Shown here: positions 5,516 to 50,843 of the stretch, one piece after another | Position numbering within the stretch: position 1 is the stretch's first letter | Layout of the letters: the number at the start of each line of letters is the position of its first letter | Source of the DNA: an uncultured Elusimicrobiales bacterium | Lineage (GTDB): Bacteria > Elusimicrobiota > Elusimicrobia > Elusimicrobiales > Elusimicrobiaceae | NCBI GenBank assembly: GCA_944327085.1 | Contig: CALVGG010000001.1 | Location: forward strand, 248,001 to 312,000 | Length of the DNA: 64,000 nt | Direction of reading: 5' to 3' | Notes under the pieces: generated by a model | Databases searched by the model: none | What the model saw: the letters and a program-made list of their open reading frames with translations, nothing else | What the model was told of the DNA's origin: nothing | Translations under genes and position numbers: made by a program

Positions 5516-6256
5516 ATGTTTTATAAAAAACCGGGGAAAGGCCATATCCTTCTTTCCAAAGGGCAGGCGCAAAAAGAGTTTTTGGATAAGCGCTTCTCCC
5601 TTTGCGTATGGAACTTGCACAAATGCAAGGCCCGCAGCTGGAAAGAGGCCTTTGCCCACTATTGCCAACAAAGCGATTTGTTTTTAACGCAGGAAATTAT
5701 GTTCCTGCCTGAAAAAGAAAACTGCTTTGCCGATTGCGGCTTGGAATGGACGGCGGCCGTAAGCTTTTTTTCTTTCCTGCGCAGGGCGCCTATCGGCATA
5801 GCCACAGGCTGCCGGGCCCCGCTTATCCATGCCGACTACCGCGCCAATGTATTTGAACCTTTTGTTCAAACCCCCAAGATGACGCTCTCCACCCTTTACC
5901 CCACCGCAAAAGGCCCGCTGCTGGTTATTAACTTGCATGCCATTAATTTTACCGGCTTAAAACCGTTTAACCTACACATGGCCGCGGCGGCAGAACTGCT
6001 GCACGGGTTTGACGGGCCGGCTTTGGTAGCGGGGGATTTTAACGTGTGGAGCCAAAAACGCCTAAATGCCATGCGCCGCACGGCCCAAACACTGCACCTG
6101 CAGGAAATTGCCTTCACACCGGATAACCGCTCCCGCTTTTTTGGCAAACGGTTGGATTTTTTATTTACCCGCGGGCTGAAAGTAATACAGGCCCAGGCGG
6201 AAGTGTCCCACGCGTCCGACCATAACCCGCTTACCGCCGTGCTGGAGCTGGAGTAG
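5516..6256 (+). CDS. Endonuclease/exonuclease/phosphatase (EEP) family protein
   Basis: DNase I-like metal-dependent phosphoesterase fold. Visible signatures are VWNLHKC near the N-terminus, the catalytic glutamate in LTQEIMF, the AGDFNVW motif (Asp/Asn) and the C-terminal SDHNPL histidine motif. At 246 residues it matches a single-domain EEP protein with no signal peptide. It follows cls by two bases, so it is co-transcribed. By analogy with other EEP proteins paired with lipid genes it might act on phospholipid or nucleotide phosphodiesters, but the substrate is not determined here. Confidence 0.85.
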   Translation: MFYKKPGKGHILLSKGQAQKEFLDKRFSLCVWNLHKCKARSWKEAFAHYCQQSDLFLTQEIMFLPEKENCFADCGLEWTAAVSFFSFLRRAPIGIATGCRAPLIHADYRANVFEPFVQTPKMTLSTLYPTAKGPLLVINLHAINFTGLKPFNLHMAAAAELLHGFDGPALVAGDFNVWSQKRLNAMRRTAQTLHLQEIAFTPDNRSRFFGKRLDFLFTRGLKVIQAQAEVSHASDHNPLTAVLELE

Positions 6257-43735: not shown

Positions 43736-46345
43736 TTATAAGGTTTCTTTTAACTGGCCCACCAATTCCTGCCAGGGGCGTTTGGCTTCGCCGCCGCCTT
43801 GGGCAAAATCCGGCCGGCCGCCGGCGCGGCCGTTTAAGTCCGCCGCGATTTGCTTGGCCACGGTTACCGCGTCCGTATTAGGCAGTTTGCCGGCCATTTT
43901 TACCACAAAGGAGCGTTTGCCTTCTTTGTCGCACGTTACAATGACCAAAGCCTGTTGGTATTTTTGGGCTACCGTATCGGCAATGGCGCGCAGTTCTTTG
44001 GGTTGGGCGTCATCAGCTTGGCGGATGACCAACGAAGAGCCGTTTTTCATCGTAAACGTCATTTCGTTCATACCGCCGGCCGCCATGGTTTTCTCGCGGA
44101 ATTGGGTGTAGCGTTTTTTAACTTCTTTTAATTCGTCCATAATCCCGTTCACGCGGGTGAAAACGTCTTTCACCGGCACCATTAAACGGGCGCTTAAATT
44201 TTCGGTGTCTTTATAGACAGATTTTAAATAATCCAGCGCGGCCGGGCCGGCTACGCCTTCTATACGGCGCACACCCGCAGAAACGGAGGCTTCTTTAAGC
44301 ACCAAAATGGTAATTACGTCCGCCGTGTTGTGCACGTGCGTGCCGGCACAGAGCTCCAGGCTGTACTTTTGTTCCGGCGCTTCAAACGAGCCGCCCATCA
44401 TTACAAAGCGGGCCGGGTCCGCATAGGTTTCACCCAAGAGGGTAACGGCGCCTAATTTATCGGCATCCGCCAGCGGGCGCACCTGGCAATTTACGGGCAG
44501 GGCGTTTTCAACCGCTTGGTTGGCAATGGCCCAGGCGCGCTGCAATTCTTCCGCCTTGGGCGTGCGGGAAAGGGTATAGTCAAAGCGGAAACGGTCCGCC
44601 GATACAAAGGACCCGCTTTGATGCACCCCCGTGCCAAATACCTGGCGCAGGGCCGCGTTTACCAAGTGGATGGCGCTGTGGTTGGCCATGCAGCGTTTGC
44701 GCACGGAGGCGTTTACGCTAAGGGTTACTTCCTGCCCTTGGGCCAGCCGGCCGTTTACTTTGTGCAAATATACTTTGCCCAGCGGTTTTTGTACGTCCAG
44801 TACCTGGGCAACGGAATTGCCTTGGGAGAGTACTTCACCCACGTCCCCCACCTGGCCGCCGGATTCGGCATAAAAAGAGGTTTTATCAAACACCGCGTAA
44901 CCTTCCCCCTGCAAACTTTCGCACGGTTCCAACGCGGCCGTAAACAGGGCCAGCACCCGGGCGTTTTGCGTAAGCGTATCATACCCCGTAAACACCGTGG
45001 CGGGATATTTGTTTTCTATACGCTGCAGCATAACCGCTTTGCCTTTGGAAAGTTCATCGGCGTAAGAGCGGCTTTTGGCCTGGGCTTCTTCTTTGGCGGC
45101 TTCATAGCCGGCTTCGTCCACTTCCACCCCTTTGGTGCGGGCAATTTCTTTGGTCAGCTCCAGCGGGAAGCCAAATGTTTCGTGCAAATGAAAAGCGTCC
45201 TGCCCGGAAATTTTACCCTTGCCCTGGGCAAGCAGCGCGGCCAGTTTTTCTTCCCCGGTTACCAAGGTTTTTAAGAAGGTGGTTTCTTCCATCTTCAGCA
45301 CGTCTTGGATGTGGGACATGTTTTTGTCAATTTCCGGGTATAAGCCGGCAAAAATTTCTTTCACTTTGGGGGCCAGCGTGTACAAATACGGTTTATCGGC
45401 ACCCATCAAACGCGCGTAACGCGCCGCACGGCGGATTAAACGGCGCAAAATGTAGCCGCGGCCCTCGTTGGAAGGCAAAATGCCTTCCGCAATTAAAAAG
45501 CTGGAGCTGCGCACATGGTCCGCAATGATGCGAAGGGCGGAAATTTCTTCCTTGGTTTCACCCTTTAAATGCAAATCCTGTTTGGCTTGGTTGATGATGG
45601 GGGTGAAAAGGTCCGTCTCAAATACGTTTTTAACGTTTTGCATCACCATGCAAAGGCGTTCCAAACCCATGCCCGTATCAATGTTGTTGTGCGGGAGGGG
45701 TTTAAAGGAGCCGTCTTCCTGGCGGTTATAGCTTTCAAAAACGATGTTCCAAATTTCCACAAAGCGGCCGCAGTCGCAAGTGATGTCGCAATGCGGGTTG
45801 GTGCAGCCTTTGGGGCCGAAGTCGTAATAAATTTCGGTACAGGGGCCGCAGGGGCCGGTGGGGCCCATGGTCCAGAAGTTATCGGCTTCGTCCAATTCAA
45901 AAATGCGGTCCGCCGGTACATATTTACGCCAAGCTTCATAGGCTTCGGCGTCACGCGGGGCAATGCCGCCTTTGTAAATGCTGACGTAGAGTTTATCGGC
46001 CGGGATACCCAACGTTTTGGTTAAATATTCCCAGGCCCAGTCAATGGCTTCCTTTTTAAAATAATCGCCAAAAGAGAAGTTACCCAACATTTCAAAAAAC
46101 GTGAGGTGGCGTTCCGTAAAGCCCACGCTGTCTATATCCGTGGTGCGCACGCATTTTTGGCAGGTGGTTGCGTTTTTGAGGGAATTGTCTATCCCTAAAA
46201 AATTGGCCTTAAACTGCACCATGCCGGCAGAAGTAAAAAGGAGGGTAGGGTCCGAATGGGGAATAAGCGAGCTGGACGCAATAACCGGCAGGCCTTTGGA
46301 ATGGAAAAACTGCAAAAAACCGTTTCTAATTTCAGTGCTTTTCAT
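43736..46345 (-). CDS. alaS: Alanine--tRNA ligase
   Basis: 869 residues, full length for the family. The N-terminal class II aminoacylation domain begins with EIRNGFLQFFHSKGL and includes LLFTSAGMVQFK. The editing domain carries the zinc-type motifs NHSAIHLVNAALR and CAGTHVHNTADV, followed by the C-Ala (DHHA1) domain with ARAGGRPDFAQGGG-type sequence. An AGGTAATC ribosome site lies before the ATG. It is transcribed alone. Confidence 0.97.
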   Translation of the reverse strand: MKSTEIRNGFLQFFHSKGLPVIASSSLIPHSDPTLLFTSAGMVQFKANFLGIDNSLKNATTCQKCVRTTDIDSVGFTERHLTFFEMLGNFSFGDYFKKEAIDWAWEYLTKTLGIPADKLYVSIYKGGIAPRDAEAYEAWRKYVPADRIFELDEADNFWTMGPTGPCGPCTEIYYDFGPKGCTNPHCDITCDCGRFVEIWNIVFESYNRQEDGSFKPLPHNNIDTGMGLERLCMVMQNVKNVFETDLFTPIINQAKQDLHLKGETKEEISALRIIADHVRSSSFLIAEGILPSNEGRGYILRRLIRRAARYARLMGADKPYLYTLAPKVKEIFAGLYPEIDKNMSHIQDVLKMEETTFLKTLVTGEEKLAALLAQGKGKISGQDAFHLHETFGFPLELTKEIARTKGVEVDEAGYEAAKEEAQAKSRSYADELSKGKAVMLQRIENKYPATVFTGYDTLTQNARVLALFTAALEPCESLQGEGYAVFDKTSFYAESGGQVGDVGEVLSQGNSVAQVLDVQKPLGKVYLHKVNGRLAQGQEVTLSVNASVRKRCMANHSAIHLVNAALRQVFGTGVHQSGSFVSADRFRFDYTLSRTPKAEELQRAWAIANQAVENALPVNCQVRPLADADKLGAVTLLGETYADPARFVMMGGSFEAPEQKYSLELCAGTHVHNTADVITILVLKEASVSAGVRRIEGVAGPAALDYLKSVYKDTENLSARLMVPVKDVFTRVNGIMDELKEVKKRYTQFREKTMAAGGMNEMTFTMKNGSSLVIRQADDAQPKELRAIADTVAQKYQQALVIVTCDKEGKRSFVVKMAGKLPNTDAVTVAKQIAADLNGRAGGRPDFAQGGGEAKRPWQELVGQLKETL

Positions 46346-48362: not shown

Positions 48363-48861
48363 ATGGGAAAAAGAAAAACAAAACGCCTCCCCTTTCGGCT
48401 CCGTTCCAATAGGCGGTTTTGGGCATCGCTTATTACGGCCGCTATTTTGCTCTTTTTACAACAGCATGGCCAACCCATTAACCAAAACCATCCCTTGCCG
48501 GGGGAAGAAACGTTAGAAGGAGCGGACATCGCTTCCGTATATGACGGAGATACTTTTAAAATTAATTTAAACGTTCGCTGGCGATATACTGTGAAAAAGT
48601 TCCCGTGCGCGCGGGGTGGACTACCCGGAAATGAAAGGAAAAGCCGCCAAAGAAAAACGTTTGGCCCGGCAGGCTAAAGCTTTTACCAAAGACTTTTTAT
48701 CCCAGCTGTCCATTACACTCACTCACTGCGGGTGGGACAAATATTTCCGACTGCTTTGTGATGTAAGTAACTCCCAAGGAGAGGATTTGGCCCAAGTACT
48801 TATCCAGCGCGGGCTGGGTTATGCGTACGACGGCGGGACAAAATCAGATGTGTTTAAGTAA
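48363..48861 (+). pseudogene. Frameshifted thermonuclease (SNase-like) gene
   Basis: The 5' part encodes a basic N-terminus, one hydrophobic helix and the SNase start VYDGDTFKINLN. The 3' part, in another frame, encodes VDYPEMKGKAAKEKR, LTHCGWDKYFRLLCDV and LIQRGLGYAYDGG, all typical of SNase. In between, the conserved CEKVPVRARGVDYPE block is spread over three frames (about 48586-48630), so at least two indels are needed, one of them in a GC repeat. It is a recent pseudogene unless the assembly is wrong. Confidence 0.8.
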
Positions 48862-48889: not shown

Positions 48890-49039
48890 CTATAACAAAT
48901 ACATTCCAACAAAAGAAGCCTTGTTATTGCAGGCGGTAAGCGGAAGCGCTACCGCGGCCAATGTGCCAATAATTAACACTACTACCAAAAGTTCAATAAG
49001 CGTAAACCCACTTAATCGGCCCGCAGAAAGGTTTTTCAT
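48890..49039 (-). pseudogene. Truncated type IV pilin-like gene
   Basis: A good RBS (AGAGGTG) and a typical prepilin leader and helix (SGFTLIELLVVVLIIGTLAAVALP, residues 10-33) are followed by only 16 unrelated residues and a stop. The usual globular domain is missing. An internal deletion or frameshift is likely. It sits just downstream of the long cysteine-rich pilin gene on the same strand. Confidence 0.7.
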
Positions 49040-49118
49040 AAACACCTCTTTTTTTGATTTCATTTTGTTTCTAACAAAATTTATCAAAAAAAAGCAAGCC
49101 CTTTTTACATTAATACAT

Positions 49119-49147
49119 AAACCCCCCCGCTAGAAAGCGGGGGGGTT
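49119..49147 (-). terminator. Terminator of the cysteine-rich pilin gene
   Basis: ACCCCCCCGCT pairs with AGCGGGGGGGT around AGAA, with T-rich flank on the minus strand. Confidence 0.8.
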
Positions 49148-49178
49148 TACAAACAACTCACAACGGTATGTTTAGATA

Positions 49179-50753
49179 TTACTCAACAACCTGACACGTA
49201 TAGTTTTCTTTACAATAGGTGGTGCAACCTAAATTCGGGTCACATCCTCCACCAGTACCGGCAGACAGCTTCCAGCAAGATCTTCCCATTGTACTGCGGT
49301 TGCATGTAAAATCACTGCACCGAGTGCCGCCGCCGGGCAAATGGAAATCACAATCCGTTTGGCTAGACCATACCAAGCCCATTTTTTTGCAAACACCATT
49401 GCTGGAAACAAGTGTATCCGGGCAGTTGCAGAAGCAACTGCTGTCAGACCAGGTGCCTCCAGAATTTTGACACGCAGTCCGTTTAGAATCTGCATTATCA
49501 CAAGCAGGAGGAGTAAATGGAGTACAAGGCTCTGCCGCTATACACGAGCAAGAACAATCCATTGTACCGCCTGCACGGTTGCAGTCTTCTTCAGCATTAG
49601 CATCACACTTTCTGTTAGGACAAGAAGAAAGATCTACACAATCTTTTTGACACACACAATTATCATCTAAAATGCCACCTTGGGCTTGACATGCCTCTTC
49701 CGTTGCTCTTGAGCACACACACTCTCCATTTATAAATTCTTTTCCTTCTGGGCAGGGTTTTTGACACACACAGTTTTCATCCAAAGTTCCTCCCTGGGAA
49801 TGACACTCTTCATCTACCGCTCTAGGGCACACACACTCTCCATTCCACAATTCTTTACCGTCTGGACAAGCCGCCGGGCATTCTTTATCCCAGTTTCCCG
49901 CCGTCCACACATTGTTCACACAGGAATAAGCTTTCGTACGTACGGTCTTCCCGTCCGAACACGTTTCCGTTATGTCCGCCGGCTTGGCCGGACATTCGGG
50001 AAAGGCTCCCTGTACCCACTCATAATTCGTGGAAGCATCGCATTTATACGATGCTTTTACCGTTCCGCAGTCGCACTGCTTTATGGCATCTGCAGGCCGC
50101 GTCCCGCTGCATTCGGGGGCCGGCGCACATTCTTCCGCCGTTTTGGAGCAGGAACCTAAACTGTTTACCCATTTTCCCCCTACGCATTTCTGCGTGGTTT
50201 GCGTGCCGCACCCGTTGCAAGACTGGCTGCCTTGCACGGCCCCGTCAGAACATTCAGGCTCTTCCGGTTCCCCTGGTGTTGGTTCCGTCCCGGGCGGGGT
50301 TACTGCCCCTTCCACCCCCGCACAAACAGAAGCGGGAAAGCTTAACGTGGCGCAATCCGGGTAGTTTTTGTTTAATTTCTTACAACCCGCACCTGTGCAG
50401 CAATAGCTGCCGTCTTCGTAAGACAAAATTTTAAGCGTATAGTCCCCGCTGTTGCTCTTGGCCGAGATACCCTGAGACTGCAAACTATACGTGTAGTTTT
50501 TGGTATTGTTGGACGCAATCACATCAGACAAACTGTCAAAATTTGTCGTGTAATTTTGGTCTAAGGAGCAGCGTCTTTCCTGCTCCGTTCTAACCGCGGA
50601 CATCATCTCCTCCGCTTCTGTTACTTTGCGGTTTTCTATCACGCGGTTGAATTTGGGCAATGTAACGGCGGACAATACGCCTATTACAATTACCACAATT
50701 AACAGCTCTGTAAGCGTAAAAGCACGCTTACGCCGTATGCAACTGGTTTTCAC
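49179..50753 (-). CDS. Type IV pilin-like protein with a very long cysteine-rich tail
   Basis: 524 residues. I start at GTG 50753 because AAGGAGG lies directly before it. The class III prepilin signal (RRKRA-FTLTELLIVVIVIG) and N-terminal pilin domain (to about residue 110) are followed by about 400 residues with some 53 cysteines. These include EGF/TIL-like repeats of the form CPxGKE-xNGECVC-RA-EExC-QGG-LD-NCVCQ. It would be cut by prepilin peptidase and assembled at, or displayed from, the envelope, with the tail needing extensive disulfide formation. An adhesive or structural role is plausible but not shown. Confidence 0.85.
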   Translation of the reverse strand: MKTSCIRRKRAFTLTELLIVVIVIGVLSAVTLPKFNRVIENRKVTEAEEMMSAVRTEQERRCSLDQNYTTNFDSLSDVIASNNTKNYTYSLQSQGISAKSNSGDYTLKILSYEDGSYCCTGAGCKKLNKNYPDCATLSFPASVCAGVEGAVTPPGTEPTPGEPEEPECSDGAVQGSQSCNGCGTQTTQKCVGGKWVNSLGSCSKTAEECAPAPECSGTRPADAIKQCDCGTVKASYKCDASTNYEWVQGAFPECPAKPADITETCSDGKTVRTKAYSCVNNVWTAGNWDKECPAACPDGKELWNGECVCPRAVDEECHSQGGTLDENCVCQKPCPEGKEFINGECVCSRATEEACQAQGGILDDNCVCQKDCVDLSSCPNRKCDANAEEDCNRAGGTMDCSCSCIAAEPCTPFTPPACDNADSKRTACQNSGGTWSDSSCFCNCPDTLVSSNGVCKKMGLVWSSQTDCDFHLPGGGTRCSDFTCNRSTMGRSCWKLSAGTGGGCDPNLGCTTYCKENYTCQVVE

Positions 50754-50843
50754 GAGACCTCCTTGCACTACTTCGTATTATTTAAATATAACAACAAATC
50801 TTTATATAGTATAGCCGAAAAAGAGCAAAAAAACACTCTTTTT

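What the first reader, a model, noticed from the sequence alone, without database searches (positions are those of the whole stretch)
49179..50753. Pilin fused to a giant cysteine-rich repeat tail
A genuine prepilin leader and pilin helix lead into about 400 residues with some 53 cysteines, including EGF/TIL-like repeats. Minor pilins usually end within 200 residues. Such a tail would need a strong oxidative folding system and might act as a rigid adhesin or protease-resistant tip. It could represent an undescribed class of pilin-displayed cysteine-rich proteins.
Basis: partly seen in the sequence, partly recalled or inferred. Interest (0 to 1): 0.65.

Follow-up and report, generated by a model that had tools for sequence, protein, structure and literature searches.

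The report
Pilins with swappable cysteine-rich tails
A gut bacterium of the phylum Elusimicrobiota carries a small family of hair-protein (type IV pilin) genes in which a shared pilin-plus-stalk front end is joined to long, cysteine-packed tails that differ from copy to copy and species to species, apparently disulfide-bonded although the usual disulfide-making enzymes were not found.

Summary
On the MINUS strand, 49179-50753 is one 524-codon gene: leader MKTSCIRRKRA, a type IV pilin domain (AlphaFold2 pLDDT mostly above 90; PAK pilin Z 8.7), a Pro/Gly/Glu linker, a cysteine-rich rod and a cysteine-rich tail, with 54 Cys in the 513-residue mature chain. It is not a lone oddity: by my tally 29 of 37 species sampled from its genus carry a member with an open frame of 300 aa or more, often in several dispersed copies. 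Each close copy is a conserved 5' module (pilin + rod, about 282 mature residues) that ends sharply at 'WDKECP', followed by a tail that differs between copies. At loci with conserved flanks the tail has been replaced between species, whereas modules within one genome resemble each other more than their positional orthologs (concerted evolution). Cys counts are even in 43 of 49 members (p=3e-8), implying disulfides, yet DsbA, DsbB and VKOR were not found in this genome; a thioredoxin(CVHC)-CcdA-like fusion beside other pilin genes is a candidate catalyst. Best reading: modular type IV pilins displaying exchangeable disulfide-rich adhesin tails. The architecture is a variant of known modular pilins; the function is inferred.

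The parts
49179..50753 (-). Modular type IV pilin gene, 524 codons plus stop
50758..50764 (-). Ribosome binding site AAGGAGG before GTG start
   Evidence: sequence
50721..50753 (-). Class III leader MKTSCIRRKRA, Ala at -1 (cleavage site inferred)
   Evidence: N_methyl over cut-off
50331..50720 (-). Pilin domain, mature residues 1-130
   Evidence: AlphaFold2 pLDDT mostly above 90; PAK pilin Z 8.7, 117 aligned, 2.3 A
50250..50330 (-). Pro/Gly/Glu-rich linker, mature residues 131-157
   Evidence: sequence; low pLDDT
49875..50249 (-). Cys-rich rod, mature residues 158-282, last part of the conserved module
   Evidence: module ends at 'WDKECP' in ten close copies; pLDDT about 90
49182..49874 (-). 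Variable Cys-rich tail, mature residues 283-513
   Evidence: no DNA similarity to tails of other copies, also at the same locus
49644..49868 (-). Two tandem Cys-rich units (114-bp period, 77% identical), the part called EGF/TIL-like
   Evidence: Pfam gives no EGF/TIL match
49118..49149 (-). Hairpin after the stop codon (14-bp perfect stem, 4-nt loop), probable terminator
   Evidence: not listed by the pattern scan

Best explanation
The gene encodes a modular type IV pilin. Its N-terminal pilin domain is processed by a prepilin peptidase and built into the cell's type IV pilus (inferred), and it carries a folded, disulfide-stabilised rod that presents a variable Cys-rich C-terminal tail, most likely an adhesin or receptor-binding region for host mucosa, plant fibre or other microbes (inferred). 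The genome keeps several dispersed copies. Homologous recombination (gene conversion) homogenises the 5' pilin+rod module, while the 3' tail, bounded by 'ECP' upstream and the stop codon downstream, diverges or is replaced at conserved loci (the sequence pattern is shown; the process is inferred). The cysteines are disulfide-paired (strong statistical inference). The catalyst is not the known DsbA/DsbB/VKOR route as far as found; a thioredoxin-CcdA-like fusion beside other pilin genes is a candidate.
For: Leader and N_methyl over cut-off; pilin fold with PAK pilin Z 8.7 and gonococcal pilin Z 8.1; PilM/N/O-like, secretin, PilB, PilC and pilin-like genes in the genome. Family in the genus, matches in the other family of the order confined to the pilin end. 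Sharp module boundary. Same locus, different tails: locus A in G000, bin78/bin129 and G035; 3' flank D with three tails. Within-genome modules 97/88/98% versus positional orthologs 90/88/69%; nearest pilin domain from the same genome for 26 of 37 copies. Even Cys in 43 of 49 members and 44 of 49 pilins of the genome. No DsbA/DsbB/VKOR match; thioredoxin-CcdA-like ORF next to pilin genes in three genomes.
Against: No expression, localisation or binding data. The cleavage site has Ala, not Gly, at -1. Prepilin peptidase was not searched for. The tails match no adhesin domain. All genomes appear to be draft assemblies, and repeats in the module can cause chimeric joins. Some tails are stable positional orthologs (bin78 and bin129 locus A, 82%), so exchange is not frequent at all loci. 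Parity counts of related sequences are not independent. Profile searches can miss a divergent DsbA.
Confidence: 0.68

Rival explanations
1. A structural or sheath-like surface protein: the Cys-rich tails cross-link into a protease-resistant coat or stiff fibre, and tail diversity is largely neutral, kept Cys-rich but otherwise unconstrained.
For: High Cys content, repeats with changing number and order, little sequence conservation in tails.
Against: Even Cys parity fits intramolecular pairing better than open cross-linking; the last stretches of tails are diverse and not simple repeats; abrupt tail replacement at fixed loci.
Confidence: 0.15
2. The protein is a pseudopilin of a type II-like secretion system, not a pilus subunit; the tail acts in the periplasm or as a secreted-substrate adaptor.
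For: Pilins and pseudopilins cannot be told apart from the leader; GspG/GspH models match weakly, far below cut-off; a second ATPase and secretin pair lies on contig C5.
Against: Best fold matches are type IVa pilins; the best-scoring ATPase and secretin are in a PilM/N/O/Q/B/C-like cluster.
Confidence: 0.08
3. The tails are metal-binding or free-thiol domains, not disulfide-bonded, as might be expected in an anaerobe without DsbA/DsbB/VKOR.
For: The oxidative enzymes were not found; obligate anaerobes are said to avoid exported cysteines (PMC12453122).
Against: Even-Cys bias in family members and in the genome's pilins; the spacing is that of small disulfide-rich beta modules and the nearest, though weak, fold likenesses are such modules.
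Confidence: 0.09

Closest known systems
Modular type IV pilins (Streptococcus sanguinis PilB/PilC class, PMC8179133)
   Same: N-terminal pilin module plus a long extra C-terminal module in one protein; thought to be displayed by the filament; 264 architectures listed there.
   Different: The extra part here is a Cys-rich rod plus variable tail with no recognised domain; it is a multi-copy family with homogenised module and replaceable tails.
PilV shufflon of R64-type plasmid pili (from my own knowledge)
   Same: Constant pilin N-terminus with alternative C-terminal tails that set binding specificity.
   Different: Here the alternatives are complete genes at dispersed loci; no inverted tail segments were seen in the gene; a recombinase was not looked for systematically.
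Neisserial pilin variation by gene conversion (from my own knowledge)
   Same: Pilin genes changed by homologous recombination between copies.
   Different: Here the pilin part is homogenised and the tail varies, across complete dispersed genes; one 5'-truncated copy was seen (L067) but no bank of silent cassettes.
VWC, CCP, TSP1 and fibronectin type I modules of animal proteins
   Same: Small disulfide-rich beta modules in a row.
   Different: Fold matches are weak (best Foldseek E 0.014; rod alone best Z 2.8), TSP1 is a sequence impression only, so this is a likeness, not kinship.

Membership tests
Type IV pilin | Class III leader followed by a hydrophobic helix with Glu5 | tested here: met
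   N_methyl over cut-off, FTLTELLIVV; TIGR02532 over cut-off; -1 residue is Ala, not the usual Gly
Type IV pilin | Pilin fold (long N-terminal helix packed on a beta sheet) | tested here: met
   AlphaFold2 model residues 1-130; PAK pilin Z 8.7, 117 aligned, rmsd 2.3
Type IV pilin | Assembly machinery in the same genome | tested here: met
   ATPase, secretin and PilM/N/O/C-like genes; prepilin peptidase was not searched for
Type IV pilin | Presence in an extracellular filament | not testable with these tools
   needs mass spectrometry or electron microscopy
Modular pilin (PMC8179133) | Pilin module and an additional C-terminal module in one polypeptide | tested here: met
   single frame; rod folded apart from the pilin; same layout in 49 members
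Modular pilin (PMC8179133) | Extra module is a known functional domain not specific to pili | tested here: inconclusive
   no EGF/TIL, lectin or vWA Pfam match in 47 members; fold matches of the rod are weak
EGF or TIL repeat protein | Match to an EGF or TIL profile | tested here: not met
   none in Pfam for this protein or 46 relatives at E 0.01
PilV-type shufflon | Invertible tail segments with an adjacent site-specific recombinase | tested here: inconclusive
   no inverted tail segments in the gene region; neighbouring genes were not searched for a recombinase
Exportome oxidised by DsbA with DsbB or VKOR | Even-Cys bias in exported proteins | tested here: met
   43 of 49 members; 44 of 49 pilins of the genome
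Exportome oxidised by DsbA with DsbB or VKOR | DsbA and DsbB or VKOR present | tested here: not met
   no PF01323, PF02600, PF07884 or PF13462 match in this genome; no DsbB, and no VKOR above cut-off, in 41 genus genomes

The most novel reading that the evidence does not exclude
An anaerobic gut lineage runs a chromosome-wide system of recombining pilin-rod modules with replaceable disulfide-rich binding tails, folded by a disulfide pathway without DsbA/DsbB/VKOR that uses a pilin-linked thioredoxin-CcdA-like membrane protein.
Probability: 0.3. Interest if true: 0.82.

Novelty: new variant of a known kind. Interest (0 to 1): 0.6.

Why it matters
Elusimicrobiota are gut bacteria whose means of holding on to hosts or particles is open; this gives concrete candidate adhesins across a genus. 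The literature says obligate anaerobes tend to avoid cysteines in exported proteins and that even-Cys exportomes go with DsbA plus DsbB/VKOR (PMC12453122). Here pilins with up to 68 cysteines and a strong even-Cys bias occur where those enzymes were not found, which makes an alternative oxidative folding route directly testable. That the lineage is strictly anaerobic is from my knowledge of Elusimicrobium, not tested here. The constant-module, replaceable-tail layout is also a natural experiment in how bacteria change binding specificity.

Tried and rejected
EGF/TIL by profile: no Pfam match. Known fold of the rod: only weak likeness to VWC, CCP and FnI; no sequence match in solved structures. 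Polymorphic-toxin layout (constant N-terminus, toxic tail, immunity gene): set aside, because the tails are Cys-rich and 3'-flank similarity restarts about at the stop codon at locus D, leaving no room for a travelling immunity gene. Phase variation by slippage: L081 and L087 have frameshifts and L067 lacks its normal 5' end, but only L087's lies in a short A run and assembly error is possible. Recent transfer between G016 and G008 (identical modules): rejected, the whole 2.2 kb with flank is 99.8% identical, so probably mis-binning or one strain. Tail shared by bin78 L058 and bin129 L065 was not used as proof of exchange, because L058 may be a chimera across the repeat (its contig ends 77 bp after the gene). 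Literature searches found no paper in the held library describing this family; the Elusimicrobium minutum genome paper, which I recall as reporting many pilin genes, did not appear among the results. Relatives outside the order were not searched with a family profile.

Full report
What was checked. The finding's coordinates hold one gene, on the minus strand. GTG at 50753 is preceded by AAGGAGG; the stop is at 49179-49181, and a hairpin with a 14-bp perfect stem follows at 49118-49149. The product is 524 aa: an 11-residue leader with Ala at -1, a pilin domain, a linker, a Cys-rich rod and a Cys-rich tail. The mature 513-residue chain has 54 Cys, 49 of them after residue 124.

Where it comes from. 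The genome has 1.67 Mb in 12 contigs and is 95.5% complete. Most of the named close relatives are MAGs titled 'uncultured Elusimicrobiales bacterium'. The genome has 52 N_methyl matches. A type IV pilus cluster (PilM/N/O-like proteins, secretin, PilB, PilC and a run of pilin-like ORFs; names from reading the ORFs) lies on contig 2; in all there are four PF00437 ATPase and two secretin matches. The prepilin peptidase was not searched for.

A family, not a one-off. All 61 genomes searched have some match, but in the 24 genomes of the other family of the order the listed matches are confined to the pilin end. In the window's genus (37 genomes with our own), by my count from the rows, 29 hold a match with an open frame of 300 aa or more. 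In 49 distinct complete members the length after the leader runs from 147 to 710 aa and Cys from 6 to 68. Nearly all have Ala at -1, while most other pilins of the genome show the usual Gly.

Two-part gene. Compared with the closest copies, DNA similarity covers residues from the end of the leader to about mature residue 282, and in ten copies it stops within a few bases at 'WDKECP'. Beyond it the tails differ. At locus A (ours) both flanks match bin78 L061 and, more distantly, G035 L086; the 5' flank matches bin129 L059. The bin78 and bin129 tails there are 82% identical in DNA, but ours is unrelated to them (38%). At 3' flank D, G000, bin69 and bin129 carry three different tails, and similarity restarts about at the stop codon. 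With flanks at about 80-89% identity, a tail with no similarity means replacement, not slow drift. Other tails (L034/L066, L030/L031) are recognisable between species at matching flanks, so replacement is occasional.

Modules evolve in concert. Identity in residues 1-64 / 65-130 / 131-286 is 97/88/98% between two loci of bin78, but 90/88/69% between bin78 and bin129 at the same 5' locus B. It is 93/93/86% between two loci of bin129, but 83/77/80% between bin129 and bin78 at locus A. For 26 of 37 copies in multi-copy genomes the nearest pilin domain is in the same genome (shuffled labels: mean 1.5, maximum 11). In several well-assembled genomes contig ends fall in the module, as expected of near-identical repeats. 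Because the loci are shared between species by their flanks, recent duplication alone does not explain this; gene conversion is the inference.

Structure. AlphaFold2 gives a confident pilin domain that matches PAK and gonococcal pilins (Z 8.7 and 8.1). The rod plus first tail repeats, folded alone, reach mean pLDDT 82 but match no solved structure clearly; VWC, CCP and FnI modules are the nearest likeness. The last ~78 residues of the tail are not predicted with confidence.

Cysteines and disulfides. Even Cys counts occur in 43 of 49 family members (p=2.9e-8) and in 44 of 49 pilins of this genome (p=3.8e-9), against 28 even to 13 odd for the window's other genes (Fisher p=0.016). Relatedness inflates the first two p values, but the tails differ strongly. 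No match was found for DsbA, DsbB or VKOR in this genome, for DsbB in 41 genus genomes, or for VKOR above cut-off in them. Thioredoxin_4 matches appear in 23 of 41. The one read in full (P0002, G016) has a signal peptide, a thioredoxin domain with CVHC, and a membrane part whose NPC and CTGQVYLP motifs look like CcdA/DsbD (my reading; Pfam names only the thioredoxin part). G000 has an ortholog at 72% identity. It lies directly beside a pilin gene in G000, G016 and G033; none was seen in the short flanks held for G008 and G036. CcdA/DsbD relatives usually carry electrons outward for reduction or isomerisation (general knowledge), so its role here is a guess.

Reading. The gene is a modular type IV pilin (known class, PMC8179133) of a new variant. 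That it sits in a pilus, that the tail binds something, and that tails are exchanged for a selective reason are inferences. Draft assembly is the main technical caveat; the tail-to-3'-flank joins relied on here are not inside the repeated module.

Noticed in passing
window 48890-49039, minus strand: A 49-codon pilin remnant (MKNLSAGRLSGFTLIELLVVVLIIGTLAAVALPLTACNNK...) just downstream: a pilin start that stops early; its 5' region is about 80% identical to the starts of other pilins.
   Followed up: partly
window 48363-48861, plus strand: Two overlapping ORFs that together look like a thermonuclease-like (SNase) gene split by a frameshift; identified by eye only.
   Followed up: no
whole genome G000: 52 prepilin-leader matches in 1.67 Mb, many near-identical in the first 25 residues and scattered over contigs; nearly all with an even number of Cys.
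   Followed up: partly
L121 (G000:C1:17755-18891), L111, L113: Thioredoxin(CVHC)-CcdA-like membrane fusion encoded directly beside pilin genes in three genomes; candidate disulfide hub.
   Followed up: partly
L054 (G033:C51), ORF residues 460-494: The tail of this family member at a locus-A-like site ends in a DHHA1 (alanyl-tRNA synthetase C-terminus) fragment; alaS also lies near our locus (window 43736-46345). Rearrangement or assembly error.
   Followed up: no
L067 (bin69) near 5985: A family copy that has lost its start codon and leader, joined to other sequence at the start of the helix; silent copy or pseudogene.
   Followed up: partly
L041 (G008) and L091 (G016): 2.2 kb 99.8% identical between two genomes held as different species, probably mis-binning.
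   Followed up: yes
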